DNA from: a virus
Strand: one strand, 5' to 3'
Length of the DNA: 64,000 bases
Virus record (IMG/VR): IMGVR_UViG_3300022723_000207
Location: 62,001 to 126,000 of that record
This document shows, piece after piece, positions 1,365 through 46,863 of this stretch (position 1 is its first letter; each line of letters begins with the position of its first letter). The notes below the pieces were generated by a model. It was not told the origin of the DNA and did no database searches. It saw only the letters and a program-made list of their open reading frames with translations. The position numbers and the translations under genes were made by a program.

Positions 1365-1376
1365 TTGGAGGCATCC

Positions 1377-2588
1377 ATGTTTGGATTCGATGACAAAATG
1401 ACTAGTCTGTTTTCTGTTAACGATGAGATTATCGTTGAACAGGATGATGATCAGAGGGATTGGACTAATATCCCAAATCCAAAGCCTGGAAAGACTCTTG
1501 ATGATCTAAAGGGTGTCAAGTTGCCTTTAGAGAGTGGTTGGACTGAAGAAGAATTAGTGTCTGCACTTAAGCCCACTTTAATCGCTGCTGCTCGCAAGTA
1601 TGATACTCCTAACTTTAGTCAGGATGAAGCTTTAATGGCGGCTATGGAAGGCATTTTTGACGCGATTAGGACTGATAAAGGAATTGCACCGTTTACAACG
1701 CACGTGTTTCCAGCTATTAAGAGTAAGACCATGCGTGCGGCAGCTGGTACGCGTGATTTTCCAACGTCCAATGTGTCTGGAGTTAAACCTCACGAAGGCG
1801 GTAAGACAGATTTCTTAAAAGGATCCAAAGCGACCGTTAGCGCAGATACGCCGGTAGATGATGAATCGGGCGGCGGATCTCATGTAGCCAGAATGTCTAG
1901 CGATGCTGACTCTGGTGAAAGAGCTGCTCAAGAACAGATGAATACAGTTAAATTGTTGAATAATTTGTTCTCTTCTGAGGAAGTTGGTCTTAATAAGCAA
2001 GAACAAGTGATCATGCGTGCTACGTATGGTATTAATGCTGATGGTGAGTATTCTGAAGCTGGTCCCAAGAGTACTGCAGAAATTGCCAAAGCATTTGGTG
2101 TTAGCAATGTTAGAATTTCTCAGGTGAGGAAAAAGGCACAACAGAAAATTAAGGACTATTTAGATAGTCGTGGACTGGGGTCACCAGAAGAGGCTATGGT
2201 TGCATTTGGTATTGAGGAAGCCAAACTGGTTGCTGCAGCCAAATTGGTTATTGAATCTATGGCCGAAATCATTGAGTTAAATATTGAGCTAATGCAGGAG
2301 CATCAAAACATTCCTGTTGATGTTGCTGTCAGTGGTGTAACTCGTCATGCCGTGGTCAAGATTAATTCAGACACATTTGAAGTGGATGACGTTGTAGCTG
2401 AAGGAAATGAAAGTGTCATGTATAACACTGACATGACGCAGATTGCGGAAGCTGTTGATCTAGCCAAGGCTAAATTGAGTCAAGGGTATTTTTCTGAGAC
2501 TGTTGCCACTATCGTTCAGATGCATGCTCAGCCAATACTTGGTGTAATTGGCCGATTAGAGGATGATGACGAAGAAACGGAAGATTAA
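1377..2588 (+). CDS. Sigma-70-like transcription factor
   Basis: A 403-residue protein resembling a sigma-70 factor. Residues about 55-115 look like region 2 (helical, SQDEALMAAMEGIFDAI, then FTTHVFPAIKSKTMR). Residues about 195-262 look like region 4, with a helix-turn-helix (STAEIAKAFGVSNVRISQVRKKA). A Gly/Ser-rich linker separates them and a helical tail of unknown role follows. The start at ATG 1377 is preferred over an upstream TTG because GGAGG at 1367-1371 is well placed. It likely redirects host RNA polymerase to phage promoters. It differs from the gp55-like factor at 4659, so the phage has two sigma-like proteins around the helicase gene. Confidence 0.7.
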   Translation: MFGFDDKMTSLFSVNDEIIVEQDDDQRDWTNIPNPKPGKTLDDLKGVKLPLESGWTEEELVSALKPTLIAAARKYDTPNFSQDEALMAAMEGIFDAIRTDKGIAPFTTHVFPAIKSKTMRAAAGTRDFPTSNVSGVKPHEGGKTDFLKGSKATVSADTPVDDESGGGSHVARMSSDADSGERAAQEQMNTVKLLNNLFSSEEVGLNKQEQVIMRATYGINADGEYSEAGPKSTAEIAKAFGVSNVRISQVRKKAQQKIKDYLDSRGLGSPEEAMVAFGIEEAKLVAAAKLVIESMAEIIELNIELMQEHQNIPVDVAVSGVTRHAVVKINSDTFEVDDVVAEGNESVMYNTDMTQIAEAVDLAKAKLSQGYFSETVATIVQMHAQPILGVIGRLEDDDEETED

Positions 2589-2644: not shown

Positions 2645-4621
2645 GTGCAGATCGTAATAACTGATAATCATACTTTGCGTTTGACGCAAGTTTATGAACT
2701 TCATGAAGAAGTTTTAGATGAGCATTTTCGTGTTAAGGATCCACAGGCTCATCACAAATTGAGTATGCGTCGTGGATATTGGGATGGTTACTATCGGTTT
2801 TATAATTCCAAAAACCAAACCTTAGCTAGAGGTTATTTGAAGGATTTAATTGAGTTATGTGTTAAGAATGATTTTCCTTTTGAAATCATCGATAAGAGGC
2901 CCAAATCTAAATACCCTGTCCCAGCACCTGGTTCTTTTGATAATCAGTTAATAGATGCTGAAATTAAAGGTAACAAAATAGTCGCTCATGATCACCAGAT
3001 GCGGTGTTGGGATGCAGTGTGCAAGGCATCTCAACACCCAATATATGAAGTCTGCACTCACTTCCACCCTACAGGTGGCGGTAAGTCTTTGATGATGGCG
3101 GGTATCGTAAAGTTGATTAGATGCCCGACGGTAATCATAACTGAACAGTCGATTGTCTTGAATCAAATAGTTAATAGTTTGAAACTATTCAATGTAGTTC
3201 ATCATGATGATATTGGTGAATTTTATTCAGGGAAAATGCCAGAAGGTAATGTGGTGTGTGTTGGTTCAATAGCTGCTTTGCAGACTCCTGTTAAGCCGCA
3301 GTTAGCCAAGTTCAATGTTAGAATGGCTACCCTGAAAAAAGATTTCAATAGCATGTATGCCAAAGATTACGACAAGTTAAAGACGATAATGTCTGTTAAA
3401 GCAATAGACGCTTGGCGTAGATCTTGTGTTCTTGATGATGTTGGTGAATTGTATGATAAGAATTTGAAGAAGGATAAGAAAAACCGAATTGATCTATCAG
3501 ACCTGATCCCTAAGCATAAAGATTGGGATGAAGTTGTTAAAGATATTGCTATTAATATTGGATTTTGGATAAAGAAAGACAAAAAGAAACTTGAGAAGTT
3601 GATTGGTAGTTTTAATGTTGCTACGTGGGAAGAGACAGAGCACGTGTCTTCTTCTTACCACAAAGAATTGAAGAATGCTATGGCTATATGGTATACTTTC
3701 GAGAGAAAGAAATATTTCGATATTGCCAGAAAAGCGTACCACACCCGGCTAGATAAATGTAGAGAATTACAGAATATGGTGTCGGAATGCGAATTATTAA
3801 TTGTTGATGAGATGGATAATGCAGCTTCTGCTAATTATACTCCTTTGTTCACGGAGTGGTTTCAGGGCAGGTATGTCCATGGGTTTAGTGGGACCCCTTA
3901 TGATCCAGATAAGCCAGTAGAAGAGATGCGCCTACGTGGCTATTTTGGGCCTGTTTCCTCTAAATCTGAGAGAAGAGAATTAGAAGAGATTGGACAGATA
4001 CAGCCAGTTAAATATTTTATGATTCAATTCGGTGATGTAGATCAACAGGATAAGACAGCATTTGATGTGGCTGAAAGAGATGTCATAATTGATAATTGCG
4101 ATTTTCATAGCGTAATAAAGAAGTCGGTTTTAAATTGGCCAGATGAGAGTCATTTAATTATTGTAGATACGACCAATGTTGAGGATCTTGGAAAGAGGTT
4201 AAATGAAATCATTCCTAACTCGGTATTTGTTTATGGAAAAGTATCTCCAAAAAAGAGACAAGCGATGATTAGGGATTTTGAGAATGGCGATATCAATGTG
4301 TTGATTGTTAGTAAAGTTGGTAAGAGAGGGATGGACTTAGGTGGTGGCGCACACAATATGCATATCATTGGGGGTGGAAAGAATCAGAGCAATTTTGATC
4401 AAATTATTGGTCGTGGTGTTCGTAATAATGATCGCGGTTGGGCTAGGGTTTTCGATTATTACTATACTGGCAATTATTATCTCTTAAGGCACTCTCGTAG
4501 GAGGCTCAATTTTATTTGTCAAATGGGTTATCAAGCCAAGATAATATTTGGCACAAAAGTGATAGAAGCTCAAAAGTTTATATCTTCTAGGTATAGAATA
4601 CCAAAAGAATTTATTTCTTGA
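2645..4621 (+). CDS. uvsW: UvsW-like SF2 DNA/RNA helicase
   Basis: A 658-residue superfamily 2 helicase. The N-terminal about 100 residues match the T4 UvsW accessory domain in pattern (RRGYWDGYYRFYN). Motif I is PTGGGKS near residue 142, motif II is VDEMD near 387, SGTPYDP follows near 420, and motif VI is QIIGRGVRN near 585. T4 UvsW unwinds branched DNA and R-loops, driving the switch from origin- to recombination-dependent replication. About 150 residues between motifs Ib and II (about 225-375) form a Lys-rich helical insertion longer than usual. The GTG start at 2645 has no strong ribosome-binding site. Confidence 0.88.
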   Translation: MQIVITDNHTLRLTQVYELHEEVLDEHFRVKDPQAHHKLSMRRGYWDGYYRFYNSKNQTLARGYLKDLIELCVKNDFPFEIIDKRPKSKYPVPAPGSFDNQLIDAEIKGNKIVAHDHQMRCWDAVCKASQHPIYEVCTHFHPTGGGKSLMMAGIVKLIRCPTVIITEQSIVLNQIVNSLKLFNVVHHDDIGEFYSGKMPEGNVVCVGSIAALQTPVKPQLAKFNVRMATLKKDFNSMYAKDYDKLKTIMSVKAIDAWRRSCVLDDVGELYDKNLKKDKKNRIDLSDLIPKHKDWDEVVKDIAINIGFWIKKDKKKLEKLIGSFNVATWEETEHVSSSYHKELKNAMAIWYTFERKKYFDIARKAYHTRLDKCRELQNMVSECELLIVDEMDNAASANYTPLFTEWFQGRYVHGFSGTPYDPDKPVEEMRLRGYFGPVSSKSERRELEEIGQIQPVKYFMIQFGDVDQQDKTAFDVAERDVIIDNCDFHSVIKKSVLNWPDESHLIIVDTTNVEDLGKRLNEIIPNSVFVYGKVSPKKRQAMIRDFENGDINVLIVSKVGKRGMDLGGGAHNMHIIGGGKNQSNFDQIIGRGVRNNDRGWARVFDYYYTGNYYLLRHSRRRLNFICQMGYQAKIIFGTKVIEAQKFISSRYRIPKEFIS

Positions 4622-4658: not shown

Positions 4659-6716
4659 ATGGGCACACAAACAATAGTAAAACCGTCTGAAGATTCAGAC
4701 ACTAAATCGTTTAACAAAAAAACTGAAGCGCCAAAGAAGCCAGGCCCACCGAAGAAAAAGAAGAACATGTACTTTGACAATGCGGCTGTTGAGCAGCTGC
4801 TTGATAGGTATGTGCGAAGAGGATGTGTGGATGTAGTATTGCGTGATGAGATTATGTCTCATGCGGAAGAGCTGATTAGACAAATTATTCGAGCCCACAA
4901 TTTTGAACATATTTTCCCAGGGCGAGACCAGTCATCCTTTGGTGAATTATTTCAAGTAGCTTGGATGCAGATTGAAAAAACTTTATATAAATATGATAAT
5001 GGACCTAATTCTCCCAAACTATTTAATATGTGGTGTGTTAAGCCAGACACCAGTATCTTCACAGAAGATGGTATTAAGAGTATATCAAATGCGATAAGCG
5101 ATAATAATATAAAGACTTATGGGTTAGATGGGATAACAGATATTGTTGATAGCGTGCGTAAAGACAGTAGAGTGGTTAATTCCATAACTACTGAATTGGG
5201 ATATGAAATCTCATGCACTCCTGAACATTTGTTGTACAAGCTTGGATCTGACGGCCCAGAATGGGTCAAATCATGCAATATTAAAGATGATGATCTAATT
5301 GGTATACAATATAACCAAAATACGTTTATTGATGATAATAAAGTTGATTTCAATGATAATAAATGGTCAGTTGATGAGATAACTGAAGAATTAGGCTATA
5401 TCATTGGTTTATATATTTCAGAAGGCTGTATTGGTAATAATTGCGTGATGATTTACAATATTGATAGTGAAGTAATTAATAAACTTTTAGATAATGATTT
5501 AGGATTGTCATGCAAGCATTATCCTGATAGACAAGCTGTGCACATACATAATGCTGGGTTTGTTAAGTTTATGGAATCCATTGGACTTGGTGGTTTGAAG
5601 GCTAGTGCCAAGATTGTTCCTGATATTGTCTTAAGATCGTCAAGAAATGTTGTTATATCAGTCATTAAGGGTATGTTTGATGGTGATGGACATTCATCTA
5701 GACATAATGGCTGCGTAGGGTATACTTCTGCTTCTGCAGCCTTAATAAAACAGGTGAGAATGTTATTGTTGAATCTTGGCATCTTATCTAAGATTAGTAG
5801 AGACAACAGGATTATTAGGAAATTTAAGGTAAAGGATAAGAAAGAATACACTAGCATTCTTACTGGTAGCATGCAGATCAGTCTGTCATCATTCGACTCC
5901 CTTAAATATTATGAAATAATTGGGTTTGAAATAGTAAGGAAACAGATAAATGTTAGTAATTTGAAAAATATTAGGGTTTTAAGGTATGGTCTTACGGCCA
6001 AGATTAATGAATTATGTGAAGATAATGGTATTTCTAGCCGATCGTCTGGATTAAGGTCTGCTAGAAATTCAAAGACTGGCTTATGTGATATTAATGAAAC
6101 GGGCAAAAAATTAGCTCTATTAGATGTTAATGAGGATGATCGCAATTTATGTTTTTTGGTTGATAGATTATCGGAAGAAATGAGCAAACATGATAGAGTT
6201 GTTTGGTTGCCAGTTAAATCAATTGAACAATCAGAGTCTGAAGTCTGTGAAATACAGGTATCATCAGAATATAGTTCATATATAGCTAATGGATTTATAT
6301 CGCATAATAGTCAAATTGCTAAGACTAGAATATTGGCATATTTGAAGAAGGAGAAACGCGATAAGAAAAATATGCCATCCTATCGTGATTGGATGCAGCG
6401 TAGGTACAAGACTAAATCACGATCAATTGAAGATTTTGAAGAATTTCTAAGTGAACTTGAACAGTTATGTGATTACGATGATGATTTTTCTGGATTAACA
6501 ATGATAATGAGGAAATTATGGCTTGAAGACGATAAACCTTATGATGGTTTTAAAGCTAAATTGCAGAGATTATCTGGCAAAGACATGAATGTTATTAATC
6601 AATTTTTGAGATTGATTAGATTACACAGAGACGAATTTTCGGCTAATGTATTCGATATGAGGGATTTTGATTACAAGGATGATGGCGGCTATTTCTATAA
6701 CGATCACGATGAATAA
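4659..6716 (+). CDS. gp55-like late sigma factor containing an intein
   Basis: The extein parts (4659-5033 and 6309-6713, about 260 residues) form a T4 gp55-like late sigma factor with a region 2-type core (FGELFQVAWMQIEKTLYKYD, then SQIAKTRILAYLKKEKR). A 425-residue intein splits this core after FNMW. Protein splicing would restore the contiguous sigma domain. ATG 4659 is chosen over an upstream TTG at 4626 because the extra residues do not look like a sigma N-terminus; no Shine-Dalgarno is visible. The C-terminal tail is acidic, which in T4 gp55 is where the sliding clamp binds (family knowledge). Confidence 0.85.
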   Translation: MGTQTIVKPSEDSDTKSFNKKTEAPKKPGPPKKKKNMYFDNAAVEQLLDRYVRRGCVDVVLRDEIMSHAEELIRQIIRAHNFEHIFPGRDQSSFGELFQVAWMQIEKTLYKYDNGPNSPKLFNMWCVKPDTSIFTEDGIKSISNAISDNNIKTYGLDGITDIVDSVRKDSRVVNSITTELGYEISCTPEHLLYKLGSDGPEWVKSCNIKDDDLIGIQYNQNTFIDDNKVDFNDNKWSVDEITEELGYIIGLYISEGCIGNNCVMIYNIDSEVINKLLDNDLGLSCKHYPDRQAVHIHNAGFVKFMESIGLGGLKASAKIVPDIVLRSSRNVVISVIKGMFDGDGHSSRHNGCVGYTSASAALIKQVRMLLLNLGILSKISRDNRIIRKFKVKDKKEYTSILTGSMQISLSSFDSLKYYEIIGFEIVRKQINVSNLKNIRVLRYGLTAKINELCEDNGISSRSSGLRSARNSKTGLCDINETGKKLALLDVNEDDRNLCFLVDRLSEEMSKHDRVVWLPVKSIEQSESEVCEIQVSSEYSSYIANGFISHNSQIAKTRILAYLKKEKRDKKNMPSYRDWMQRRYKTKSRSIEDFEEFLSELEQLCDYDDDFSGLTMIMRKLWLEDDKPYDGFKAKLQRLSGKDMNVINQFLRLIRLHRDEFSANVFDMRDFDYKDDGGYFYNDHDE
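5034..6308 (+). mobile_element. LAGLIDADG intein inside the late sigma factor
   Basis: All splicing blocks are present: Cys1 at 5034 after extein Trp, block B TPEHLL at intein residues 62-67, LAGLIDADG-type helices LGYIIGLYISEG (about 120) and VIKGMFDGDG (about 210), and C-terminal ISHN followed by extein Ser. At 425 residues it is full length with a homing endonuclease domain. The reading frame is intact, so splicing and homing both look functional. Confidence 0.92.
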
Positions 6717-7278: not shown

Positions 7279-7894
7279 CCCAGAACTTTCTGGTCTTCTT
7301 AATGAAATAGAAGATGCGGAAGGTGATGCTAGCAAGGCCCAGCTTGAAGAGGATATTGATGATCCTCAAAAAACTGAGATGGAAAAAGATGCAGAAGCGT
7401 CTGCTAGCTTAGAGATTGATGCTGAAGAGAATGATATTGATGATTTTAATTCTTTGGAAGATGATTTTGAAGAGGATGGCAATGATGATTTTGAAGCTCA
7501 AGTGGAATATGAAGCTGAGGTAGTAGAAGTAGACCAAGAAAAAGAGCGAATTGAGAAGAATATTATAGGGCTGCTGGATCAGCATTGTGATAGTGCTAAA
7601 GCAATGTTTGAAGAAGCAGAAGTTGACCGTCGTAGGATTGATGATGTGGTTGCCATATTGCTCCCTAAAATAGAGGGTGATGACTATCGCGGGTCGGATA
7701 TTATGGCATTGGCTAATTTAATTCAGACTAAGGCAGACATTAGTAAAAATAGAGCATCTAATATGGATTCTATTGCCAAATTGTTTGCAGCACTGAAGAA
7801 TAATGATCGGATTGCACCGAATGCTGGCGGTTCTGGCGATGATGACCTCTCAAATGAAGAGATAGCTGTGCTATTGGGTAAGAGAGATGCATGA
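7262..7894 (+). CDS. Acidic protein upstream of terL, possible small terminase by position
   Basis: About 210 residues, Asp/Glu-rich in the first 110, then a helical C-terminus (about 115-195). GTG 7262 is preferred because AGGAGG at 7249-7254 lies 7 nt upstream; an in-frame ATG at 7238 is the alternative. It precedes the terminase large subunit, separated only by an inserted endonuclease gene. A small terminase role is therefore possible from position, but no motif confirms it. Confidence 0.5.
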   Translation: MSEEIDPELSGLLNEIEDAEGDASKAQLEEDIDDPQKTEMEKDAEASASLEIDAEENDIDDFNSLEDDFEEDGNDDFEAQVEYEAEVVEVDQEKERIEKNIIGLLDQHCDSAKAMFEEAEVDRRRIDDVVAILLPKIEGDDYRGSDIMALANLIQTKADISKNRASNMDSIAKLFAALKNNDRIAPNAGGSGDDDLSNEEIAVLLGKRDA

Positions 7895-9317
7895 ATTTAT
7901 AGAAAAAGCTGTCGGAGTGCATGGTCATAATTGTGATTATTCTGAAGTCGATTATGTAAATTCATACACTCCAGTTAAGATAATATGCAAGAAACATGGT
8001 TATTTTTTCCAGAAACCATCTGAACATTTAAGGAGTAAGTATTCGTGTCCAGAATGCAGAAAGTATTCGGTTCGTAATCTACTAAAAAGAAGTTATAATG
8101 AATTTTTAGAGAAATCGATAAAATTGTATGGAAGCGATTATGAATATAAAGAAGAATGGTATGGTGATAAGAGGTCTAAAGTATACTGTAAAGTGCATGG
8201 TGTAGTTAGTATTAATAATAGGACGTTTTTAGAGGGAATGGGATGCCCTAAGTGTGGATATGACAGGTCACATAGTAGTAGAGTGCTATCCACGTCTGAA
8301 TTTGTTGATAGGGCCGTTAAGGTTCACGGCCATAAGTACGACTACACCAATGTCGATTACAGTCATAATAAGATAAATGTTGGGATAAGATGTCAAAAAC
8401 ATGGGGTGTTTTACCAAGAGCCGAATAATCATTTAGAGGGCAAAGGGTGCCCCAAGTGTTCTTTCATTGTTACTAAATTTCACGATGATGTGCAGAAGTT
8501 TATTAAGAGTATTGGGATTGGTTTTAAATCAAATGATAGGAAATCAATTGACCCATATGAAATAGATATATTGTGTGATGGCAATATTGGCATTGAGTGT
8601 CATGGATTATTTTGGCATTCGTATGATAAACCAGAGACGAAAGAGGAAAGATTTCGCCATTATGATAAATATGATTTGGCCACCAAAAACGGTGTTAGTC
8701 TTATTCAGATATACGAAAATGAATGGAAGTACAAGAATGAAATAATTAAGTCTGTTTTATCTTGCAAATTTGGCAAAAATGGTACTATTGGTGCTAGAAA
8801 GTGCACAGTTGTTGAGTTGTCATTTAATGACTATCATAAATTTATGGATGCTAATCATATACAGGGTTCCACTAATAATTGTAGCGTTAGATATGGATTA
8901 ATTTATGGTGGTAAAATAGTATCTTGTATTGGTTTTAACAGGCATTTTAGGTATGGGTGGGAGATATCTAGGTTCGCCAGTTTGCTTTGGTTTAATGTTA
9001 TTGGTGGTTTTAGTAAATTATTCAGAAGATTTATAACTGATTATAACCCAAATACTGTATTGACATATTCTGATCGACGTTACTTTAGTGGTGATATATA
9101 TCGTAGTAATGGTTTTATTTACGATGGCGTTACAGCTCCTGGTTTTTGTTATACTGATAAATTTACAGTTTACCCTAGGCAGAAATTTCAGAAACACAAA
9201 TTGCCTGGTATATTAATAAATTTTAATAAATCATTGACTGGCCCTGAGAATATGTTTGTTAATGGGTATAGAAGAATATGGGATGCTGGTAATCATAGGC
9301 TATTATGGCGGGCTTAA
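7887..9317 (+). CDS. Vsr-type homing endonuclease with zinc-ribbon repeats and GNAT-like C-terminus
   Basis: 476 residues in three parts. Residues about 3-190 hold three tandem 55-65-residue repeats, each with a YDY-type core, C-x2-HG-x-F and a final CPxC pair, likely zinc-stabilised DNA-binding units. Residues about 195-300 carry the Vsr/EDxHD-like nuclease signature (EIDILCDGNIGIECHGLFWH). Residues about 300-476 form a GNAT-like domain (YGLIYGGKIVSCIGF, ISRFAS, YSDRRYFSGDIYRSNGF, FQKHKL) shared with the genes at 11221 and 24383. Its start overlaps the upstream stop and its end overlaps the terL start by 13 nt, so it was inserted without breaking coupling. Confidence 0.82.
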   Translation: MHEFIEKAVGVHGHNCDYSEVDYVNSYTPVKIICKKHGYFFQKPSEHLRSKYSCPECRKYSVRNLLKRSYNEFLEKSIKLYGSDYEYKEEWYGDKRSKVYCKVHGVVSINNRTFLEGMGCPKCGYDRSHSSRVLSTSEFVDRAVKVHGHKYDYTNVDYSHNKINVGIRCQKHGVFYQEPNNHLEGKGCPKCSFIVTKFHDDVQKFIKSIGIGFKSNDRKSIDPYEIDILCDGNIGIECHGLFWHSYDKPETKEERFRHYDKYDLATKNGVSLIQIYENEWKYKNEIIKSVLSCKFGKNGTIGARKCTVVELSFNDYHKFMDANHIQGSTNNCSVRYGLIYGGKIVSCIGFNRHFRYGWEISRFASLLWFNVIGGFSKLFRRFITDYNPNTVLTYSDRRYFSGDIYRSNGFIYDGVTAPGFCYTDKFTVYPRQKFQKHKLPGILINFNKSLTGPENMFVNGYRRIWDAGNHRLLWRA

Positions 9318-11224
9318 CTAAAAATCAGAAAATAATGGTGTTAAGAAGATGCAAGAAGTCTTTTCAGTACTTCTGTGAGAATTTTTGCAAAATTAAACAT
9401 CCTAATGCTGGAATTATTCCATTTAAACTGTTTAAGTATCAGAAGAAGTCTATTAAGGCATTTAAGAAGTATGATAGAGTAATTTATCGTAAATGCCGCC
9501 AGTCTGGAATATCAACACTCACTGGTGCCTATGCACTTTGGTTGGCGATGTTTCATCCGAACCGCAAAGTATTGATAGTATCCAAAAGAGATGAGGATGC
9601 CATTGGATATCTTAATAGAAATGTAAAATTTGTTTTTGAATATCTTCCTGAGTGGATGCATGCTATTTTTGGTGATCCACGATCAGGCAAGTCTAGAAAA
9701 TACGCTCCTCCTAAGACCTATAACGAGCACACCATTGAATTCTTTCATGGTTCGGATATCAAATCATTAACTAGCTCTAAAGATACTTTGCGGTCCAACA
9801 CTGCTTCTCTTGTTATTATCGATGAAGCTGCATTTATTGATTATATGGAAGAGATGTGGACTGCTGGTCAGCCTACCCTGATGCATGGTGGTCGTGTTAT
9901 TGTGATTTCTACTACTAATGGTAAAGGCAATTGGTATCACAATACATGGGAAGATGCGGTTGCTAATACTAACGGGTTTTATCCAATCCAGATTCCGTGG
10001 TGGAATATGGATTGGGTTATTGAATGGTATGATGAATTAGCTGGAAAACGTATTCGTTTAGCACCTTGCGATGGGATCGAAAAGTGCATTTCTAGAGAAG
10101 ATAAGCTGAGATTTGGCAAGTTCAAGAGCCCCTGGCTTGAGCAGCAATATCGTGAGCTACAAGAAAATGGTGAAGCTTGGAAGTTCCGTCAAGAAATTCT
10201 GATGGAATTTATTGGCGCAGGCAATACAGTATTGAGTCAAGAAGCTTTGCTTACTCTAGAGAATCAGATTAATAATGATTATAAAGTGATGAAAAAATCA
10301 ATAGCTTATAACAATGATAATGCTAACATTAATGGTTATATTTTAGATTTTAATGATGGATTACATATTTGGGAAAGACCAGTTAGAAAGACTCAAGATA
10401 TAATTAATGCTATTGGTAGAGTTGTAACACCAGGAAATCCAGGTAATAAATATAGTTTAGGGGCTGACATATCTTCTGGTGAGGCTACTGACTATTCATC
10501 TATTGTCATTATTGATGCTACTGTTAGAAGACAGGTAGCAGAATTGAAAATTAAATGTGATACCTCAGATTTTGCCAAAATGATCGACTTTTTAGGTAGG
10601 TATTATAACAATGCTTTGGTAGTCGTTGAAAATACTGGAATCGGTAAGCCAGTGGCACAGGATCTGAAGAGGATGTATTATTATCCTAATCTGTACTATC
10701 GCAGATTGCCATCTGGCAAGAAAGATAAGAAACCAGGTTTTCCAACTACAAATGCCAGTAAGCCAGATATTGTTAAGGCTTTAACAGATAATATGGGTAT
10801 TGAAGATGATGGTGTTCTATTTAAATCCGCTAGATTGGCTAAAGAAGCTAATTCATTTATTCATCTTGGTGGCGGCAGAGTTGGCAATGAGCCTGGGACC
10901 AATAATAATGATGACTTAATGATCGCTGCTGGCTTGGCATGCATAGGCATCATGGATGCATTAGAGACACCAGACGGTTTGATACCTACTACATCAAGGC
11001 ATGTTGAAGCTCATATGGAAGAGCGAATCGAAATGACTCTTGATGATGCGCTGACTAAGGGTGGTCGAGAGTTGATGTTTCCGATTGCTGTAGGATCTGA
11101 TCCATCTACCATTATGAATGTGGAAGATGAGGTCAACAATTTTATTAATCAGATGGGTGGAGGTAGGACACCAGACCAGAAAGCGGTAATGCCCGCTACC
11201 AGTAGTAAGAAATATTTCCAATGA
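9305..11224 (+). CDS. Terminase large subunit (gp17-like)
   Basis: 639 residues with ATPase and nuclease domains. Walker A-like CRQSG lies near residue 64, Walker B IIDEAAF near 171, and coupling motif STTNGKG near 205. The RNase H-fold nuclease has GADISSGEATDYSS (about 386), VVVENTG (about 438) and NNDDLM (about 533). It is the packaging motor that translocates and cuts genomic DNA at the portal. The ATG lies inside the end of the upstream endonuclease gene and the stop overlaps the ATG of the next endonuclease (ATGA). Length is normal for T4-type TerL. Confidence 0.95.
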   Translation: MAGLTKNQKIMVLRRCKKSFQYFCENFCKIKHPNAGIIPFKLFKYQKKSIKAFKKYDRVIYRKCRQSGISTLTGAYALWLAMFHPNRKVLIVSKRDEDAIGYLNRNVKFVFEYLPEWMHAIFGDPRSGKSRKYAPPKTYNEHTIEFFHGSDIKSLTSSKDTLRSNTASLVIIDEAAFIDYMEEMWTAGQPTLMHGGRVIVISTTNGKGNWYHNTWEDAVANTNGFYPIQIPWWNMDWVIEWYDELAGKRIRLAPCDGIEKCISREDKLRFGKFKSPWLEQQYRELQENGEAWKFRQEILMEFIGAGNTVLSQEALLTLENQINNDYKVMKKSIAYNNDNANINGYILDFNDGLHIWERPVRKTQDIINAIGRVVTPGNPGNKYSLGADISSGEATDYSSIVIIDATVRRQVAELKIKCDTSDFAKMIDFLGRYYNNALVVVENTGIGKPVAQDLKRMYYYPNLYYRRLPSGKKDKKPGFPTTNASKPDIVKALTDNMGIEDDGVLFKSARLAKEANSFIHLGGGRVGNEPGTNNNDDLMIAAGLACIGIMDALETPDGLIPTTSRHVEAHMEERIEMTLDDALTKGGRELMFPIAVGSDPSTIMNVEDEVNNFINQMGGGRTPDQKAVMPATSSKKYFQ

Positions 11225-12534
11225 TAGACTGGGAAATCACAAGAAGAAAGTTTAATATTAGCACTGTGGATGGCTATAGACCTAAGGTAGTAGTAAGATG
11301 CGATAAGTGTGGCAAAATAAATGATTTAACAATAAGAGTAAAGTCTAAAGTAATAGACAATAATATTAATTGGATTTGCCATAAGTGTGTTGGTAGTCGC
11401 TCAGAAGTTAGATCTAAACTTAGTAAGTCTACGTCTAAAAAATGGGAAAGTCAAGAGTACAAAAATGAAAGAATACTAAATAGTAAACAACTATGGTCTA
11501 GTCCTGAATTTATCCGCAAGCATCAAGAGTCAGTCAATTCACTTGCTAGTAGAAAGAAATGCTCAGAAGCTGCGGTTAATGCTTGGAAGAATGAGCAATA
11601 CAGAGAACGTCATGCAGTTGCTCTAACTGAGCAGTTTAACAAAATACCATCAACAGAAGTGAATGTCATAGCCATATTAGATGGGTTAGGTGTTGACTAT
11701 GTTCACCAATACGCGGTTGGCCCTTACACTTTTGACTTTTTGATTGAAGATTATTTGTTAATTGAAATTAATGGAAATTATTGGCATACTAGGCCAAATG
11801 TCATTAGGAAAGATAGAGCCAAAGAGTCGTATATTTCTCAAATAAACAAGTACAAGTATAAGGTATTGTGGGAATCACAACTATCTGATGTTGATAAAGT
11901 TATATCATTATTTAAACATTGGATCGGTATTGAGGATGTTAAAGCTAAATCTATTATTCTTAAAGATTTAGAATTTAAATTAGTTTTAGAACCAGAATAT
12001 AAGAAGTTTTTTGGGTGTTATCATTATTTGGGAGGGGCTGGAAGGGCTGGTACAGCAGTCGGCGCATATTTGCGAGATGAGCTGGTGTGTTGCGCTTTAT
12101 TTGCTCATCCAACGAGGCGTGAGACTTACCATAGGTTAAAGTTATCCAAAAATCAATGTTTGGAGCTGACAAGACTTGCTACATCGCCCTTTTATACAAA
12201 CAGTAATTTATGTTCATATTCTATGAAGATGTTTATCAAACTAATATATGGAGAATATAGTGATTTAGCCTGCCTGATTGCTTTTTCAGATCCAATTGAG
12301 GGTCATAATGGAACTGTTTATAAGGCTAGCAATTGGCAATTTGATGGATTTACTGCTAGTTCTTATTATTATGTCAATGGCGATGGTTGGAAGATGCATA
12401 AGAAAACTTTATGGAATAAAGCTAAAGGGATGCATTTGAAAGAAAAAGAATTTGCTGATAAGTTTGGCTACAAGATGGTTAGAACACCACCATTACGTAG
12501 GTTTTTGTATTATTTAGGTAAATATAGAGCATGA
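11221..12534 (+). CDS. Vsr-type homing endonuclease with Mom/GNAT-like C-terminus
   Basis: 437 residues. An N-terminal CDKC/CHKC zinc ribbon (about 22-58) is followed by NUMOD3-like repeats (KKWESQEYKNE, KQLWSSPEFI). The Vsr-like nuclease is at about 145-230 (FDFLIEDYLLIEINGNYWH). The C-terminal Mom/GNAT-like domain (about 245-437) has GAYLRDELVCCALF, ELTRLAT, FSDPIEGHNGTVYKASNW and MHKKTLWNKAKG. Start and stop overlap terL and the portal gene by ATGA at both ends. It replaces the tail genes that lie between terL and portal in T4. Confidence 0.82.
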   Translation: MIDWEITRRKFNISTVDGYRPKVVVRCDKCGKINDLTIRVKSKVIDNNINWICHKCVGSRSEVRSKLSKSTSKKWESQEYKNERILNSKQLWSSPEFIRKHQESVNSLASRKKCSEAAVNAWKNEQYRERHAVALTEQFNKIPSTEVNVIAILDGLGVDYVHQYAVGPYTFDFLIEDYLLIEINGNYWHTRPNVIRKDRAKESYISQINKYKYKVLWESQLSDVDKVISLFKHWIGIEDVKAKSIILKDLEFKLVLEPEYKKFFGCYHYLGGAGRAGTAVGAYLRDELVCCALFAHPTRRETYHRLKLSKNQCLELTRLATSPFYTNSNLCSYSMKMFIKLIYGEYSDLACLIAFSDPIEGHNGTVYKASNWQFDGFTASSYYYVNGDGWKMHKKTLWNKAKGMHLKEKEFADKFGYKMVRTPPLRRFLYYLGKYRA

Positions 12535-24382: not shown

Positions 24383-25843
24383 ATGGAACAAGAATTATCA
24401 GATAAGATAACAAATTTATTTAATGATGGGTTAACCCATCAAGAAATTGGTGATACTATTGGCAAGCCTCGCAGGACAGTAATGAAGCTGTGTGGGAAAC
24501 TTGGGTTAAAAAGATCCAGAGCAGAGGCTGCATCGTTAAAAACTAAGTCTCCTCTAGATGATCCTGAGATAATTAAATTCATAAGGAACAACAGAAATTC
24601 TTTGTCGTTAGAGGAGATAGCCAAAACATATAACTCATCTATAAGCTCAGTTCAGAGAATATGTGATAAATATGAGATTATTTTAGATAAAAAGAGATTT
24701 GTAAAATCTCAGTCTACTAAAATGAAAAATGCTTGGGACGATAATAAAAAAGAGAAAGCTAGAGATAAAAGTTTAAAATTGGTTACGCCAGAACTGAAAC
24801 AGAAACTTTCTGATGGATCTAGGAAACTGTGGAGTAACAACGATTATAGAGAAAAGCAGGTAAAGATTCAGACAGAAATATGGAATAAGCCAGAAAACAG
24901 GAAAAGGTTAGCTTTATGGAGGGCCAACCAAAGTGGCAGGTTGTCGTCAATACAGAAAATTTTATATTCTATCCTAGATGATTTAGGAATTAAATATTTT
25001 AAAGAAGGCAACCATACTGATAAAGAGTGCATTATTGGTCCCTACAATTTTGATTGTGTAATTCCTAGACCCAATGATAGAGATTTAGTTATTGAATGCC
25101 AAGGTGATTATTGGCACACTCAGGATAAAGCGATAAGAATTGATAAATCTAAGGCAACTTATTTGGAGAAATATTGTTCCAACACACATGAATTGAAATA
25201 TTTATGGGAACATGAATTTGCTTGCCAAAATAGGATTGGTGAACTGATAAAATATTGGACTGGATTAACTGATAACCAAATTGAAAATTTTGATTTTGGT
25301 GATCTGGACATAAAAAGATCAAAAGCTGAAGAATACAAACTGTTGCTATCAAAGTATCATTATTTGCCAAATGCAGGTAAAGGTGGAATGGCTTATGGAG
25401 CTTATTTTGGTGATGAATTGATTGCTGTATGTGTGTTTTCCAAGTTGGTCAGGCAAAATATTGAGATTGATGGGTTTAATAAAAATGAAGTAATTGAATT
25501 ATCTCGTCTTTGTATCCATCCAAATTATCAAAAGAAAAATCTTGCTAGTTGGTTTGTTAGTAGGTGCATTAAAAAGTTAGATGTTTCAATTAAGTGTATC
25601 GTTAGTTACTGTGATACCACTCATAATCATGATGGGGCTATTTATAAATCACTAAATTTTGTTAATGATAAAGAGGTAAGACCAGATTATTGGTATACTA
25701 ATGAGAATGGGTGGGTGATGCATAAAAAGACTTTGTATAATAAGGCTGTTAAAATGAACATTGTAGAATCTGAGTATGCCAACAAATTTGGGTATAAAAA
25801 GATATTTGGATCCAAAAAATTGAGATTTGTGTTTAAAAGATAA
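24383..25843 (+). CDS. Vsr-type homing endonuclease with HTH N-terminus and Mom/GNAT-like C-terminus
   Basis: 486 residues. Two helix-turn-helix units (about 12-45 and 65-95) are followed by NUMOD3-like repeats (KLWSNNDYREKQ), a Vsr-like nuclease (about 195-295: NFDCVIPRPNDRDLVIECQG, then DYWH) and a Mom/GNAT-like domain (about 315-486: YGAYFGDELIAVCVFSK, ELSRLCIHPNYQKKNLASWF, HNHDGAIYKSLNF, MHKKTLYNKAVKM). It is a paralogue of the gene at 11221 in its last two domains. It sits downstream of the capsid locus between a terminator and a non-coding gap. Confidence 0.82.
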   Translation: MEQELSDKITNLFNDGLTHQEIGDTIGKPRRTVMKLCGKLGLKRSRAEAASLKTKSPLDDPEIIKFIRNNRNSLSLEEIAKTYNSSISSVQRICDKYEIILDKKRFVKSQSTKMKNAWDDNKKEKARDKSLKLVTPELKQKLSDGSRKLWSNNDYREKQVKIQTEIWNKPENRKRLALWRANQSGRLSSIQKILYSILDDLGIKYFKEGNHTDKECIIGPYNFDCVIPRPNDRDLVIECQGDYWHTQDKAIRIDKSKATYLEKYCSNTHELKYLWEHEFACQNRIGELIKYWTGLTDNQIENFDFGDLDIKRSKAEEYKLLLSKYHYLPNAGKGGMAYGAYFGDELIAVCVFSKLVRQNIEIDGFNKNEVIELSRLCIHPNYQKKNLASWFVSRCIKKLDVSIKCIVSYCDTTHNHDGAIYKSLNFVNDKEVRPDYWYTNENGWVMHKKTLYNKAVKMNIVESEYANKFGYKKIFGSKKLRFVFKR

Positions 25844-39015: not shown

Positions 39016-39597
39016 ATGGCTAATATTGGACAAATGGTTGGTAACTCGATCAATGCTTTACCGCTTGATCGCATGTTTAAAGCCCCAGCTTTGGCCATGG
39101 CCGATACTCAGAAGCAATTGTCTTATAATTATATGGAATGGGTCAAGGCAGTTGGTCTTGATGAAAATGGCAATGTTGTGATGGTCACTGCTGAATATGA
39201 CGAAGATATAGTTGATGAGCAAGGTAATGTCACAAATACTGTTAAAAAGAAACTGGCTGTCCCTTTACTTTCCATTTTGACTCATCCTAATGTTAATGTT
39301 CAAGAGGGTAGTGTTGAATTTGAAATGACTATCCAATCTTCTGAAGAATCTACTTCAGAATCTGAAGCAGAGGGTAGTTTTCAAGCTAAAGCTGGCTGGG
39401 GTCCGTTCTCAGTTAAGATTTCTGGTCGTGCTAGTCATAAGTCTTCTCAGACACGTAAAACTGATACTCGCGCTCGTTATGCTGTTAATATGAAGATCGC
39501 TAAAGATGATGCCCCAGAAGGTATGATGCAATTTATGGAAATGATTCAACAGGCTGTGACTCAGCCAAAAGTTGCTGCATCTGCTCCTAGTAACTAA
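39016..39597 (+). CDS. DUF2589-family protein
   Basis: 193 residues matching DUF2589: ADTQKQLSYNYMEWVKAVGL near residues 29-48, KKLAVPLLSILTHPNVNVQE, and the Ser/Glu-rich AEGSFQAKAGWGPFSVKISG. The family has no settled function. It is immediately followed by a second, divergent member. AAGGAGA lies upstream of ATG 39016. Confidence 0.75.
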   Translation: MANIGQMVGNSINALPLDRMFKAPALAMADTQKQLSYNYMEWVKAVGLDENGNVVMVTAEYDEDIVDEQGNVTNTVKKKLAVPLLSILTHPNVNVQEGSVEFEMTIQSSEESTSESEAEGSFQAKAGWGPFSVKISGRASHKSSQTRKTDTRARYAVNMKIAKDDAPEGMMQFMEMIQQAVTQPKVAASAPSN

Positions 39598-39600
39598 TGC

Positions 39601-40392
39601 ATGAGTATTTTTAACCCTCTGACTTGGTTTGGTAAGAAGAAACCCAAGTCAGAGGGCTCTTCAGTTAAATGTGAAACTCCAGATGCTACAGATAATGCAT
39701 ATCTTGAAAAACGCCCTTCTAAATCAAGTGGAGAGGGGCAGACTTTATCTGATATTGTTCGTGGTATAGCACATGCAGCAGGTGCAGCCAATGAAATCCA
39801 AGATAGACAGTTTATTCAGCAAGTTGATCATTATTTTCATAAAGAAGAAGATGGTACTTTAGTTCCTAAAGTTGTCCGTTGTAAAATTGATGACACCACA
39901 TATATCGAAGTTCCGTTGATATCCATGATTGATCCTTCTACCTTAGGGCTAGAAGAAATGGATGTCAGAATGGGAGTTAGACTGTCTCGGTCTGAAATTA
40001 AAAAGCATCTTCATGACGCTAATAAAGAAAAAGAAGTATCACGATGTAGTTTTAATGTTTCTTTAACTAGCTCTAAGCCAGGTGATCGTCAAGATGTTAT
40101 TGATGTGACGATGAAATTTAAGAAGACTGAGCCAGCTGAGGGATCTGCTCGATTAGTCGAAGAGATGAATGGATTGGTTCATCCCCATAAATATGGTGAA
40201 GACACGTCTGAACCTAGCCAATATACTAATGTATTTACATCACGTCAGGTGAGGGCCTCTATTGATAATGGCGGGTCTGATAGTTTTGAACCACATGACC
40301 ATAATTTAGATGATTCAGACGAAGGTTTAAAACCTAAGTCGTCTGATTCCCCATCATCAGAATCATCTGAATCAGATGAATCCTCTTCATAA
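39601..40392 (+). CDS. Second DUF2589-like protein
   Basis: 263 residues, related to the upstream protein in the segment IEVPLISMIDPSTLGLEEMDVRM, with a long Ser/Asp-rich C-terminal tail. The first codons hold a strong inverted repeat: 39615-39630 pairs with 39640-39656, 13 contiguous bp plus a bulged extension. This could limit translation. Only three bases separate the two genes. Confidence 0.65.
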   Translation: MSIFNPLTWFGKKKPKSEGSSVKCETPDATDNAYLEKRPSKSSGEGQTLSDIVRGIAHAAGAANEIQDRQFIQQVDHYFHKEEDGTLVPKVVRCKIDDTTYIEVPLISMIDPSTLGLEEMDVRMGVRLSRSEIKKHLHDANKEKEVSRCSFNVSLTSSKPGDRQDVIDVTMKFKKTEPAEGSARLVEEMNGLVHPHKYGEDTSEPSQYTNVFTSRQVRASIDNGGSDSFEPHDHNLDDSDEGLKPKSSDSPSSESSESDESSS

Positions 40393-40396
40393 AATA
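40388..40396 (+). promoter_or_regulatory. Candidate late promoter element CATAAAATA
   Basis: Late-promoter-like element 6 nt upstream of ATG 40403, which has no Shine-Dalgarno. Confidence 0.35.
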
Positions 40397-40402
40397 TAAG
40401 AT

Positions 40403-40807
40403 ATGTTAAAGATTGAAAGAATCATAACTGACAATTCTTTCAGTTATGATGATGTTGAATTTATGGATTTCGATGAAGATCAGAAAGCTGCTGGTATTGG
40501 AAAGTATATTACTGATAAGTTTCTTAAGCAGATTGTTATTCGCACCAAGGATGGCGAGACTAAAATTATTACGGACTGGATGGTGGGGGTCCTGCAAATT
40601 CGAAAGATGAAAGCTAGAACCGGTCTTGAAAAGGTGACTAGATTAGTCATCAACGGTGAGATATCTTATGGCCCAGTATTTTTAATACCTATATCGTCTT
40701 ACAAAAGATTGGAAGTACCAAGAGTATTTGAACATCAACTGTCTTTTATTGCAGATGGTTGGTTATATGTGTGTCACCAAGTATCGCTTATCGAAATAAC
40801 TATGTAG
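40403..40807 (+). CDS. Hypothetical protein
   Basis: 134 residues, beta-rich C-terminal half (LVINGEISYGPVFLIPISSY). It follows the DUF2589 pair and may belong to the same functional unit. No family recognised. Confidence 0.55.
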   Translation: MLKIERIITDNSFSYDDVEFMDFDEDQKAAGIGKYITDKFLKQIVIRTKDGETKIITDWMVGVLQIRKMKARTGLEKVTRLVINGEISYGPVFLIPISSYKRLEVPRVFEHQLSFIADGWLYVCHQVSLIEITM

Positions 40808-40835
40808 CGTATTTTATCTCTACTAGGAGATAAAA

Positions 40836-41120
40836 ATGATCGCAGAACCACAGCGTAAAACAGCGCGTTTGAGCAATATTGCTGAAAATGCCAAAAAGGC
40901 TAAGCAATTTCAGCGTACAGATTATGGTGGTAAAAATCAAATCGAAGCATTATATCAATTTATTGAAGAAGAAGTGGAGTCTAAGGGCGGCAAGCTAGGT
41001 CAAAATACTAAATATTTGGTGGCTAAAGCGTTGCAAAAGCTAGCTGCTAAACAAGTTGCCTCTTGCCGTAAGCGAACTGATGGCCCCCTTAATGAGATTA
41101 TCCGCTTAGCAGGTGGCTGA
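40836..41120 (+). CDS. Small basic helical protein
   Basis: 94 residues with many Lys and Gln (ENAKKAKQFQRTDYGGKNQ). AGGAGA precedes ATG 40836. Nucleic acid binding is possible from charge alone. Confidence 0.55.
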   Translation: MIAEPQRKTARLSNIAENAKKAKQFQRTDYGGKNQIEALYQFIEEEVESKGGKLGQNTKYLVAKALQKLAAKQVASCRKRTDGPLNEIIRLAGG

Positions 41121-41182
41121 CATAATTTACTAACAATTGTTTTTTTGTATAAACTGATTTAGACGTATTGAAGGAGCGCAGT

Positions 41183-42742
41183 ATGACAACTGCATTGGTT
41201 CAGTCGCTTGTGTATCTTGATAATGGCCAATTGAAAATTGTGCCGGATGCTAAGAAGGCTGTTAAAAAGGCAGTTCTAGCATTCTTGGATATGTCCAGTA
41301 CGGCTACTGGACAGAAGACTCATTACAATAAGCGGTCCGAACAAATCGCAGCCATGGAAGATATTCATAACGCTGTGTTTGAGGTCAATCGTGGATTGTA
41401 CCTCGCCATGCTGGCTTTACCTGGTGTATTGGATATTTCCATCCAGCAAGGTATCACCCGTCTTCTTGGTGACAAGAATGGCGCATCACTTCTATCTTCC
41501 AACGAAGAAGCGGAGCTGATCAAGATTTTGTCTGGTCGTTTGAAGGCTGACCGTCTTTTGAAGATGCTGGGCATGATCTGTGACCAGAAGATTAACCGCC
41601 GTAGCGTTAGGACTTTTATTCTTGTGTCTGTTCTGGCGCACAGGAATCTGCCTTGGTGGGCTGTTAAGTATCGCCGCCATTTGCTGAAGGCTCTCAAGCA
41701 TGCTTGGGGTTCTAAGTACGCTATGGTTGTAGCGCGTGTTCTGGCTGGTGGTATTGACAATGCTACCGCTCGTGATGCAGCGTTGGTTCGCAAGCTAGTT
41801 GATCGTTATGCTGTTCATTCTTCTTGTCCGAAGAGTGATATCTATGAGTCAATCTGCTATGTTTTCGGCAAGGATATTCCGTTCAAGAATGATGTGCTGA
41901 AGGCGCGGGTGGCCGCTCGTGATGACCTGTCTGCTGGTAAGGTTCTTCCTAAGGAAGTACTTGAAGGTATTCGTGGGCGTTTCCATAAGCGGGTAAGTAA
42001 GGATCGCATTCTTGAGTTGACTAAGGACACGATGACTGATAAGCAGAAGCTGCGTAGCCAGCGGTCTGCCAAGAAGGCTGAAGTCGAGATGAAGTTTGAT
42101 GCTTCTAAGCTCGATGCGGTTTCTTTATATGTCCATGCTCTAGAAGAGGGTATGGATGAGGATTCTCGTGCTGCTCTTGATGAAAAGGCTTCTCGGGTTG
42201 CTAGTGGTTTTCCCTTGCGGTATCAGAAGGCGTCGATTGTACTCGATACTTCACTCTCTATGTCTGGAACTGATCACAATAAGAATCGCCCTCTGGCGAT
42301 TTCCTTGGCAATGAAAGACGTACTTGTTGAGGCCAGTGATTCCAGCGAAGTGTTCTGCACTGAAGGGGAGCTTGACCGCAAGGGGCTTATTAAAGCTTCT
42401 GGTGACACCTCTCTTGCTAAGGCTGTGGCCAAAGCATTTATGACTGAACCAGATGTTGTGTTCTTGATTACCGATGGGTATGAGAATGCTCCTGCTGGTC
42501 GCGTCCATGAAGTCATTTCTGCAGCGCGTAGGCTGGGTATCGAAACTCCAGTTTATCAGTTCAGCCCGGTCATGGCTTCAGAAGCTGCTGGTATTCGTAG
42601 TCTTTCTGATCATGTGTCGGCCTTGCCTGTCTCCACACCAGAAGGTATTGGACTGTCATTAATTCGTGTGGCTATTGAGCAGGATACAGAGCGTGGTCTA
42701 CAAGCTCTGTTGAATGCAACTGTACCGCGTTTGTCGGCTTAA
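41183..42742 (+). CDS. Helical-repeat/VWA protein resembling Ro60 (TROVE-VWA)
   Basis: 519 residues. An alpha-helical region (about 1-330) with repeated two-helix units precedes a VWA domain (about 345-519) with all MIDAS elements: VLDTSLSMSGT, SGDTSLAKA and FLITDGYEN. This order matches Ro60/Rsr proteins, which bind Y RNAs and misfolded RNAs; the N-terminus is only loosely TROVE-like by eye. AAGGAG at 41171-41176 supports ATG 41183. An ARPP-1-like gene follows 10 nt downstream in one operon. Confidence 0.62.
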   Translation: MTTALVQSLVYLDNGQLKIVPDAKKAVKKAVLAFLDMSSTATGQKTHYNKRSEQIAAMEDIHNAVFEVNRGLYLAMLALPGVLDISIQQGITRLLGDKNGASLLSSNEEAELIKILSGRLKADRLLKMLGMICDQKINRRSVRTFILVSVLAHRNLPWWAVKYRRHLLKALKHAWGSKYAMVVARVLAGGIDNATARDAALVRKLVDRYAVHSSCPKSDIYESICYVFGKDIPFKNDVLKARVAARDDLSAGKVLPKEVLEGIRGRFHKRVSKDRILELTKDTMTDKQKLRSQRSAKKAEVEMKFDASKLDAVSLYVHALEEGMDEDSRAALDEKASRVASGFPLRYQKASIVLDTSLSMSGTDHNKNRPLAISLAMKDVLVEASDSSEVFCTEGELDRKGLIKASGDTSLAKAVAKAFMTEPDVVFLITDGYENAPAGRVHEVISAARRLGIETPVYQFSPVMASEAAGIRSLSDHVSALPVSTPEGIGLSLIRVAIEQDTERGLQALLNATVPRLSA

Positions 42743-45617: not shown

Positions 45618-45772
45618 CTTTGGCAATCAATAGCAGCAGAAACTAGGACGTCATTTCCGAATTAGCTCACTAGGTAGAGCATCAGTCTAGTAAACTGAGG
45701 GTAGTGGGTTCAATCCCCACATTCGCACCAAACACTGACCTCCATTCATTCTGCTGCGATTAATTGCCAAAG
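45618..45772 (+). ncRNA. RNA module 2, encloses tRNA-Thr-like gene
   Basis: Outer arms 45618-45641 and 45749-45772 pair over 24 positions with few mismatches. Left loop ACTA, 3-bp stem GGA/TCC, C.C mismatch, P2 GTCA/TGAC. P2 differs from the GTTAA/TTAAC of the other modules yet remains paired, a compensatory change. Confidence 0.75.
45657..45730 (+). tRNA. tRNA-Thr(AGT)-like
   Basis: D arm GCTC/GAGC, anticodon stem TCAGT/ACTGA with loop CTAGTAA, T arm GTGGG/CCCAC with TTCAATC, encoded ACCA. The acceptor has only six positions with a C.C end mismatch, and its 5' strand merges with the conserved TTCCG of module 2. An AGT anticodon is uncommon in bacteria. Confidence 0.65.
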
Positions 45773-45803
45773 CAACATTGACAATTTTATATAAGCTGCC
45801 AAC

Positions 45804-45960
45804 GATTTGCAACAAAGCAAAATCAGGAACTTGAGCGTTAATTCCGATAATTAGCTCTCTGGTAGAGCAATTGCATGCAAAGCAATGGGTACAGGTTCAA
45901 TTCCTGTATTATCACCAAAATTTAACCCTCGTCTATCCTGATTTTACTTTGTTGCAAATC
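45804..45960 (+). ncRNA. RNA module 3, encloses tRNA-Cys-like gene
   Basis: Outer arms 45804-45828 and 45936-45960 pair over 25 positions with one mismatch. Left loop ACTT, 3-bp stem GAG/CTC, C.C mismatch, P2 GTTAA (45837)/TTAAC (45922), then TTCCG. Confidence 0.75.
45846..45917 (+). tRNA. tRNA-Cys(GCA)-like
   Basis: Anticodon stem ATTGC/GCAAT with loop ATGCAAA, D arm GCTC/GAGC, T arm ACAGG/CCTGT with TTCAATT, encoded CCA. Acceptor GATAAT/ATTATC is only six pairs. A normal tRNA-Cys lies at 56701, so this is a second copy held inside module 3. Confidence 0.7.
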
Positions 45961-45961
45961 A

Positions 45962-46279: not shown

Positions 46280-46338
46280 CTTTTGCTCCCCATCAGACTT
46301 GCCGACAGGCCCTGGTGGGGTTATTTTTGGTAGCTTGA

Positions 46339-46415
46339 TGCGGGGTAGTGCAGTCCGGTAGCATGTGAGCCTCATAAGCTCAAGGTCGGAGGTTCGAATC
46401 CTTCCCCCGCTTCCA
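46339..46415 (+). tRNA. tRNA-Met(CAT)
   Basis: Acceptor TGCGGGG/CCCCGCT with a T.T mismatch at the end, D arm GTGC/GCAT, anticodon stem TGAGC/GCTCA with CTCATAA, T arm GGAGG/CCTTC, encoded CCA. An unpaired first position is an initiator-like trait, so an initiator role is possible. Confidence 0.85.
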
Positions 46416-46860: not shown

Positions 46861-46863
46861 TGT

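What the first reader, a model, noticed from the sequence alone, without database searches (positions are those of the whole stretch)
5034..6308. Intein in the gp55-like late sigma factor
A complete LAGLIDADG intein interrupts the sigma core after FNMW. Inteins usually occupy polymerases, helicases, RNR or terminase; late sigma is an unusual host. Splicing would gate late transcription, so splicing rate could act as a timing switch.
Basis: partly seen in the sequence, partly recalled or inferred. Interest (0 to 1): 0.72.

Follow-up and report, generated by a model that had tools for sequence, protein, structure and literature searches.

The report
Intein inside a phage sigma factor
A self-splicing, self-copying protein insert (an intein) sits in the DNA-melting part of a transcription-initiation factor of an uncultured virus of bacteria; relatives of the same insert occur at two fixed spots in the same gene of at least 16 other uncultured viruses, so this gene is a recurring but seemingly unreported intein home, with no evidence that splicing acts as a timer.

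Summary
ORF 4659-6716 encodes a 260-aa protein split by a 425-aa class 1 LAGLIDADG intein (5034-6308: Cys1, TPEH, two LAGLIDADG motifs, ...SHN, then Ser+1). The host protein has no BLAST relatives in cultured phages. Its predicted fold matches sigma region 2, and Pfam scores it as weakly as it scores T4 gp55. So it is a sigma factor, probably gp55-type; 'late' is not shown. By alignment the intein maps between sigma70 A431 and T432, just before the W433/W434 melting dyad. IMG/VR holds at least 114 relatives. Among 60 distinct lineages, 8 carry an intein at this site and 2 at another site 23 residues upstream (region 2.2); further scans bring the totals to 11 and 7, and one virus has both. The rest are empty. 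Sigma inteins form one clade, sister to terminase inteins, with site-specific subclades, patchy presence, decayed endonucleases, one pair where the intein is better conserved than its host, and one apparent site switch. This is a classic homing cycle in a host gene for which I found no published intein. Splicing must occur to make an active sigma, but the 'timing switch' has no support beyond that requirement.

The parts
4659..5033 (+). N-extein (125 aa): YF-N N-terminal motif, helices of sigma region 2.1-2.2, ending ...KLFNMW
   Evidence: aligned with intein-free homologues. Start may be ATG 4659 or an upstream in-frame TTG at 4626.
5034..6308 (+). Intein, 425 aa, class 1, with nested two-motif LAGLIDADG homing endonuclease (site b)
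5034..5036 (+). Cys1, N-terminal splicing nucleophile
   Evidence: direct sequence
5217..5228 (+). Block B TPEH (intein residues 62-65)
5400..5426 (+). LAGLIDADG motif 1, IIGLYISEG (acidic residue present)
5664..5690 (+). LAGLIDADG motif 2, IKGMFDGDG (acidic residue present)
   Evidence: Pfam LAGLIDADG_3
6297..6308 (+). Block G ISHN: penultimate His and terminal Asn
6309..6713 (+). C-extein (135 aa) beginning with Ser+1, SQIAKTRILAYLKKEKR: sigma region 2.3-2.4 helix, then a helical C-terminal part with a possible helix-turn-helix
4962..4967 (+). Empty 'site a' (ELFQVAW^MQIEK, between 4964 and 4965): the second sigma intein site, occupied in L005, L017, L080, L121, L129, L133/L128, L134
1365..2588 (+). 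Second sigma-like gene (phrog_351 RNA polymerase sigma factor; weak Sigma70_r4), conserved upstream neighbour
2645..4621 (+). UvsW-type helicase, conserved neighbour (phrog_16)
9305..11224 (+). Terminase large subunit, no intein here; TerL inteins are the sister group of the sigma inteins

Best explanation
This is a canonical class 1 mobile intein whose home is a phage-encoded sigma factor (region-2 fold, probably a distant gp55 relative). The gene is translated as a 685-aa precursor. The intein then excises itself (Cys1 acyl shift, transfer to Ser+1, Asn425 cyclisation) and joins FNMW to SQIAKTR, restoring the region 2.3 helix of a 260-aa sigma. Its LAGLIDADG endonuclease copies the intein into empty alleles of the same gene during co-infection. 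The intein persists as a selfish element because it sits in codons the phage cannot change or imprecisely delete. Shown here: anatomy, sigma fold, exact junction, empty alleles, two sites, patchy distribution, a sigma-specific intein clade with site-specific subclades, endonuclease decay in some copies. Inferred: that splicing is efficient, that the endonuclease cuts, that the sigma acts late.
For: All splicing residues and both endonuclease acidic residues are present; the model matches endonuclease-inteins. Extein: every one of the listed top 25 PDB fold matches of an intein-free homologue is a sigma factor, including SigE N-domain with target TM 0.79, rmsd 2.0, probability 1.00; viral fold matches include several gp55 late sigma factors. 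Sigma70_r2 hits three of eight members (best E=0.0027), comparable with proven T4 gp55 (E=0.087); in the own genome only two places match Sigma70_r2, one ending within two codons of the intein boundary. Distribution: 60 distinct lineages, 8 with site b and 2 with site a; the tree needs at least 8 changes. More cases, including both sites in one gene (L133 and L128 overlap 100% over 1712 bp). Sigma inteins form one clade (100/99), sister to TerL inteins. L020/L087 inteins are more alike (dN 0.22) than their exteins (dN 0.30). Decayed endonuclease motifs: L004 IAKG, L018 FSSNN.
Against: No splicing or cleavage was tested. Sequence-profile similarity of the extein to gp55 or sigma70 is not above shuffled controls by hhalign with the 60-lineage profile (only marginally so); gp55-HMM hits rank first but with E of 0.05 or worse. 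The fold model has modest confidence (pLDDT 70) and Foldseek E-values above 0.05 in PDB.
Confidence: 0.86

Rival explanations
1. Splicing timer: the intein was kept because slow or conditional splicing delays active sigma and so times late gene expression.
For: An unspliced precursor cannot form the region 2.3 helix (site maps to A431/T432 of sigma70), so splicing is upstream of function. Conditional splicing is documented for other inteins (papers PMC5790916, PMC6195587, PMC7360933).
Against: Most lineages have no intein, including close relatives (L003 against L005; L063 against L087). The site differs between sister genes (L019 site b, L080 site a). Residues at the splice centre are canonical. 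No late-box enrichment.
Confidence: 0.07
2. The host protein is not a sigma factor but another small helical DNA-binding phage protein.
For: No database BLAST match; hhalign to gp55 and sigma70 not above shuffles; HMM E-values weak.
Against: Fold searches in two libraries return sigma factors almost exclusively; Sigma70_r2 scores equal those of T4 gp55; Pfam register agrees in three members and places the conserved Leu-x-Gln on sigma70 L404-Q406.
Confidence: 0.1
3. Dead intein: splicing-defective remnant, so the gene is a pseudogene or makes two separate pieces.
For: None in this sequence; one relative has a non-canonical junction (L019 ends VSN).
Against: Both exteins and the intein look to be under purifying selection in the window/L004 pair (pN 0.18 and 0.21 against pS 0.83 and 0.75; synonymous sites near saturation); all catalytic residues kept.
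Confidence: 0.03

Closest known systems
Phage terminase large-subunit (TerL) and UvsW-helicase inteins (e.g. Psychrobacillus phage Perkons TerL; Herelleviridae helicase)
   Same: Class 1 splicing blocks plus two-motif LAGLIDADG endonuclease, similar length; Perkons TerL is the best cultured-phage match (26% over the whole intein); TerL inteins are the sister clade
   Different: Different host gene and insertion sites; only 22-26% identity over most of the intein in cultured phages
Mycobacteriophage inteins (PMC5050341)
   Same: Multiple neighbouring sites in one host gene, at functional motifs, sporadic distribution
   Different: Hosts are TerL, RecB-like nuclease, methylase, thymidylate synthase, etc.; the word 'sigma' does not occur in that paper
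Archaeal transcription factor IIB inteins (Iwai et al. 2017, cited in PMC7765530) and eukaryotic RNA polymerase inteins (PMC1635734)
   Same: Intein in a basal transcription component; TFIIB is the functional counterpart of sigma
   Different: Non-homologous host protein, cellular not phage
T4 gp55 late sigma factor
   Same: Sigma region-2 fold; similar Pfam Sigma70_r2 score and register; phage carries gp23-, gp21-, gp20- and gp17-type genes; acidic, aromatic C-terminus reminiscent of gp55's (visual only)
   Different: No significant sequence match; no intein in T4 gp55; T4 late promoter box not enriched here

Membership tests
Class 1 intein | Nucleophile Cys/Ser at position 1, block B T/N-x-x-H, terminal His-Asn, Cys/Ser/Thr at +1 | tested here: met
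   C1, TPEH (62-65), SHN425, Ser+1
Class 1 intein | Splicing-domain homology and HINT fold | tested here: met
   PF14890 E=1.4e-9 above cut-off; Foldseek TliVMA intein E=2.9e-15
Class 1 intein | In-frame insertion with intein-free homologues continuous at the junction | tested here: met
   L003 and about 50 other lineages
Class 1 intein | Autocatalytic splicing activity | not testable with these tools
   needs expression
LAGLIDADG homing endonuclease | Two LAGLIDADG motifs, each with a catalytic acid | tested here: met
   IIGLYISEG and IKGMFDGDG; PF14528 E=6.4e-15
LAGLIDADG homing endonuclease | Cleaves the intein-less allele | not testable with these tools
   comparative signs of mobility only
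Sigma-70 family region 2 | Sigma2 fold | tested here: met
   moderate-confidence model of homologue L003
Sigma-70 family region 2 | Pfam Sigma70_r2 above the gathering score | tested here: not met
   best 17.9 bits against 24; the proven sigma T4 gp55 also fails (13.1 bits), so the test does not discriminate
T4 gp55 late sigma | Sequence homology to gp55 | tested here: inconclusive
   gp55 HMM ranks nine members as its top nine among the loci's ORFs, but E is 0.05 or worse; hhalign not above shuffles with the larger profile
T4 gp55 late sigma | Late promoters TATAAATA | tested here: not met
   5 seen, 6.3 expected; a diverged sigma may read another box
T4 gp55 late sigma | Sliding-clamp gp45 and co-activator gp33 in the same phage | tested here: inconclusive
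   PF02916 finds nothing, but nothing rang in the controls either; gp33 not searched
Conditional-splicing intein | Splicing rate responds to a physiological signal | not testable with these tools
   no assay

The most novel reading that the evidence does not exclude
Phage sigma factors host their own intein lineage, which entered from a terminase-type intein, split into two site-specific families 23 residues apart (core-binding region 2.2 and promoter-melting region 2.3), and in some phages has become a rate-limiting post-translational gate on a transcription programme.
Probability: 0.07. Interest if true: 0.8.

Novelty: new member of a known kind. Interest (0 to 1): 0.5.

Why it matters
It appears to add sigma factors to the list of intein hosts, with two insertion sites that map onto the two functional surfaces of sigma region 2. 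The family gives an unusually clear natural series (empty, active-looking, endonuclease-decayed, site a, site b, both) for studying intein homing in one phage gene. Because no sigma activity is expected before splicing, it is a clean place to test whether an intein ever sets transcription timing. Practically, annotators will miss this sigma: it has no BLAST relatives among cultured phages and is hidden by the insert.

Tried and rejected
(1) BLAST of the extein against 50,697 phages and phmmer/hmmsearch against PDB: no significant match. (2) hhalign of the extein profile against gp55 and against RpoD/RpoS: correct-looking register but scores within the shuffled range (marginal), so not used as proof. 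(3) T4 late-promoter box enrichment: negative. (4) gp45 clamp search in the own genome: uninformative, control silent. (5) Scanning IMG/VR with the window intein alone: only chance patterns; an intein alignment was needed. (7) Octamer search upstream of genes: nothing promoter-like. (8) Split intein or intron: rejected, since the frame is continuous with all splicing blocks.

Full report
OBSERVATION. The ORF 4626/4659-6716 (+) encodes a 685-aa protein (from ATG 4659) in which residues 126-550 (bases 5034-6308) are an intein. The intein starts CVKPDTSIFT, has TPEH in block B, LAGLIDADG motifs IIGLYISEG and IKGMFDGDG, and ends YIANGFISHN before Ser+1. Pfam gives Intein_splicing 1.4e-9 and LAGLIDADG_3 6.4e-15; PDB sequence relatives are VMA, PI-PfuI and PI-PkoII inteins; the predicted precursor structure matches endonuclease-inteins with E down to 2.9e-15. 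The coordinates of the finding are exact.

WHAT THE HOST PROTEIN IS. The spliced 260-aa extein has no match in 50,697 phage records, and weak or no family hits. IMG/VR scans found relatives (114 relatives in the last scan, 80 kept). An intein-free homologue (L003) was modelled from eight natural homologues (pLDDT 70). The listed top 25 PDB fold matches are all sigma factors; isolated region-2 domains superpose best (8b3z, target TM 0.79, rmsd 2.0). The viral library returns sigma factors too, including gp55-type late sigma factors of Delftia, Campylobacter, Vibrio, Stenotrophomonas and Rhizobium phages. Pfam Sigma70_r2 hits members at E=0.0027-0.25, and T4 gp55 itself scores only 0.087, so the weak score is what a true gp55 gives. 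In the whole 153-kb record, Sigma70_r2 at E<=10 finds only two places: gene 1365-2588 (phrog_351 sigma factor) and this ORF, where the match ends within two codons of the intein boundary. A gp55 HMM ranks nine family members as its top nine hits among the ORFs of the loci, but with E of 0.05 or worse; hhalign is not above shuffles with the 60-lineage profile. I conclude: sigma factor, about 90%; gp55-type, about 70%; 'late' not shown. The T4 late box is not enriched. The phage does carry T4-type head genes (gp23-type capsid, protease, portal, terminase).

WHERE THE INTEIN SITS. In three members (window; L009 and L015) the Pfam alignment puts the residue before site b on profile position 53, counting back from the C-terminal end of the match without gaps; that is A431 of E. 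coli RpoD (379-449 = positions 1-71). The intein therefore lies between the equivalents of A431 and T432, just before the W433/W434 dyad of region 2.3 (role of the dyad: established knowledge). Site a, after ELFQVAW/Y, maps by the same reasoning after N409 in region 2.2, the beta-prime-binding surface (established knowledge). Site b lies in one of the best conserved stretches of the family (rank 6 of 211 windows, 3.97 bits against a mean of 2.85; site a rank 39).

DISTRIBUTION AND EVOLUTION. Of 60 distinct sigma lineages, 8 have site b, 2 have site a, 50 are empty. The count is biased: the scan kept only the best 80 loci, and intein-split genes score lower. An intein-alignment scan and a scan of cellular genomes added L124, L125, L128 (site b) and L129, L133, L134, L121 (site a); L017, cut by the contig end, is also site a. 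In total 11 distinct inteins are at site b and 7 at site a. L133 and L128 overlap with 100% identity over 1712 bp and together show one gene with both inteins. The extein tree needs at least 8 changes of state: L003 (empty) is sister to L005 (site a); L019 (site b) is sister to L080 (site a). The intein tree puts all sigma inteins in one clade (100/99), sister to TerL inteins (94/82 for the joint group), with site-a and site-b subclades (100/99 each); L019 is the exception, a site-a-type intein at site b (AU p=0.025 against site-b monophyly) with a non-canonical VSN end. For window and L004 the intein diverges about as the extein does (dN 0.24 and 0.21), consistent with shared descent; for L020 and L087 the intein is the more conserved (dN 0.22 against 0.30, pS 0.62 against 0.82), consistent with horizontal movement. 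Endonucleases decay in L004 (motif 1 IAKG) and L018 (motif 2 FSSNN). This is the gain, decay and loss cycle expected of a homing element. The direction TerL to sigma is an inference.

MECHANISM. Splicing is required for a working sigma because both sites break the long helices of region 2; the apparent purifying selection on both exteins implies that it happens. Homing is inferred from motifs and phylogeny. A regulatory delay is possible in principle, as conditional splicing exists (PMC5790916, PMC6195587, PMC7360933), but nothing in this locus points to it, and the frequent absence in kin argues against a needed timer.

NOVELTY. In cultured phages, the inteins recognisably related to this one lie in helicases, terminases, RNR, DNA polymerase or RecA wherever the listed hits carry a functional name (a few records label the same helicase-type hit as gyrase); not all hits were listed and some records lack annotation. 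Searches of 5.39 million open papers with intein plus sigma-factor terms gave no report of a sigma-factor intein that I could recognise from titles and abstracts; subscription papers and InBase were not available. Precedents in kind: TerL multi-site inteins (PMC5050341), MCM multi-site inteins (PMC10643990), archaeal TFIIB inteins (cited in PMC7765530). So: a new host gene and two new sites for a known kind of element.

Noticed in passing
Outside the window: L118:948-3830 (own record C1 about 39447-42329): A second intein in the same phage, in a glycosyltransferase-like protein...FIGYG|CFTENNYVVT...YIVNGVVVHN|CEDTEFYKRM. A glycosyltransferase is also an uncommon intein host.
   Followed up: partly
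L133 (contig 3300031565_000372) and L128 (contig 3300031539_010881): One sigma gene with two inteins, at site a and site b, separated by a zinc-ribbon-like insert.
   Followed up: yes
L019:4277-5608: Intein of the site-a lineage located at site b, with a non-canonical C-terminal junction (VSN instead of SHN): apparent site switch within one gene.
   Followed up: partly
L020-L025 and many other relatives (e.g. L023:3905-4888): The sigma carries a CxxC...CxxC (zinc-ribbon-like) insert between the region 2.2 and 2.3 helices, an unusual architecture for a sigma region 2.
   Followed up: no
window 7887-9317, 11221-12534, 24383-25843: Free-standing REase-fold homing-endonuclease-like ORFs between head genes; two also match Mom-like DNA modification proteins over their C-terminal part.
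   Followed up: no
window 1365-2588: A second sigma-like gene (phrog_351), syntenic in L003 and L004, two genes upstream of the intein-bearing sigma.
   Followed up: partly
L121 (WJMJ01000101.1, labelled Candidatus Lokiarchaeota MAG): The contig has a phage-like helicase, sigma (site a intein) and a terminase with its own intein; probably a bacteriophage contig binned into an archaeal MAG.
   Followed up: no
window 45656-63636: Array of 18 tRNA genes on the + strand, with two tRNA-Cys (gca) and several isoacceptors of Thr, Gly, Glu and Met.
   Followed up: no
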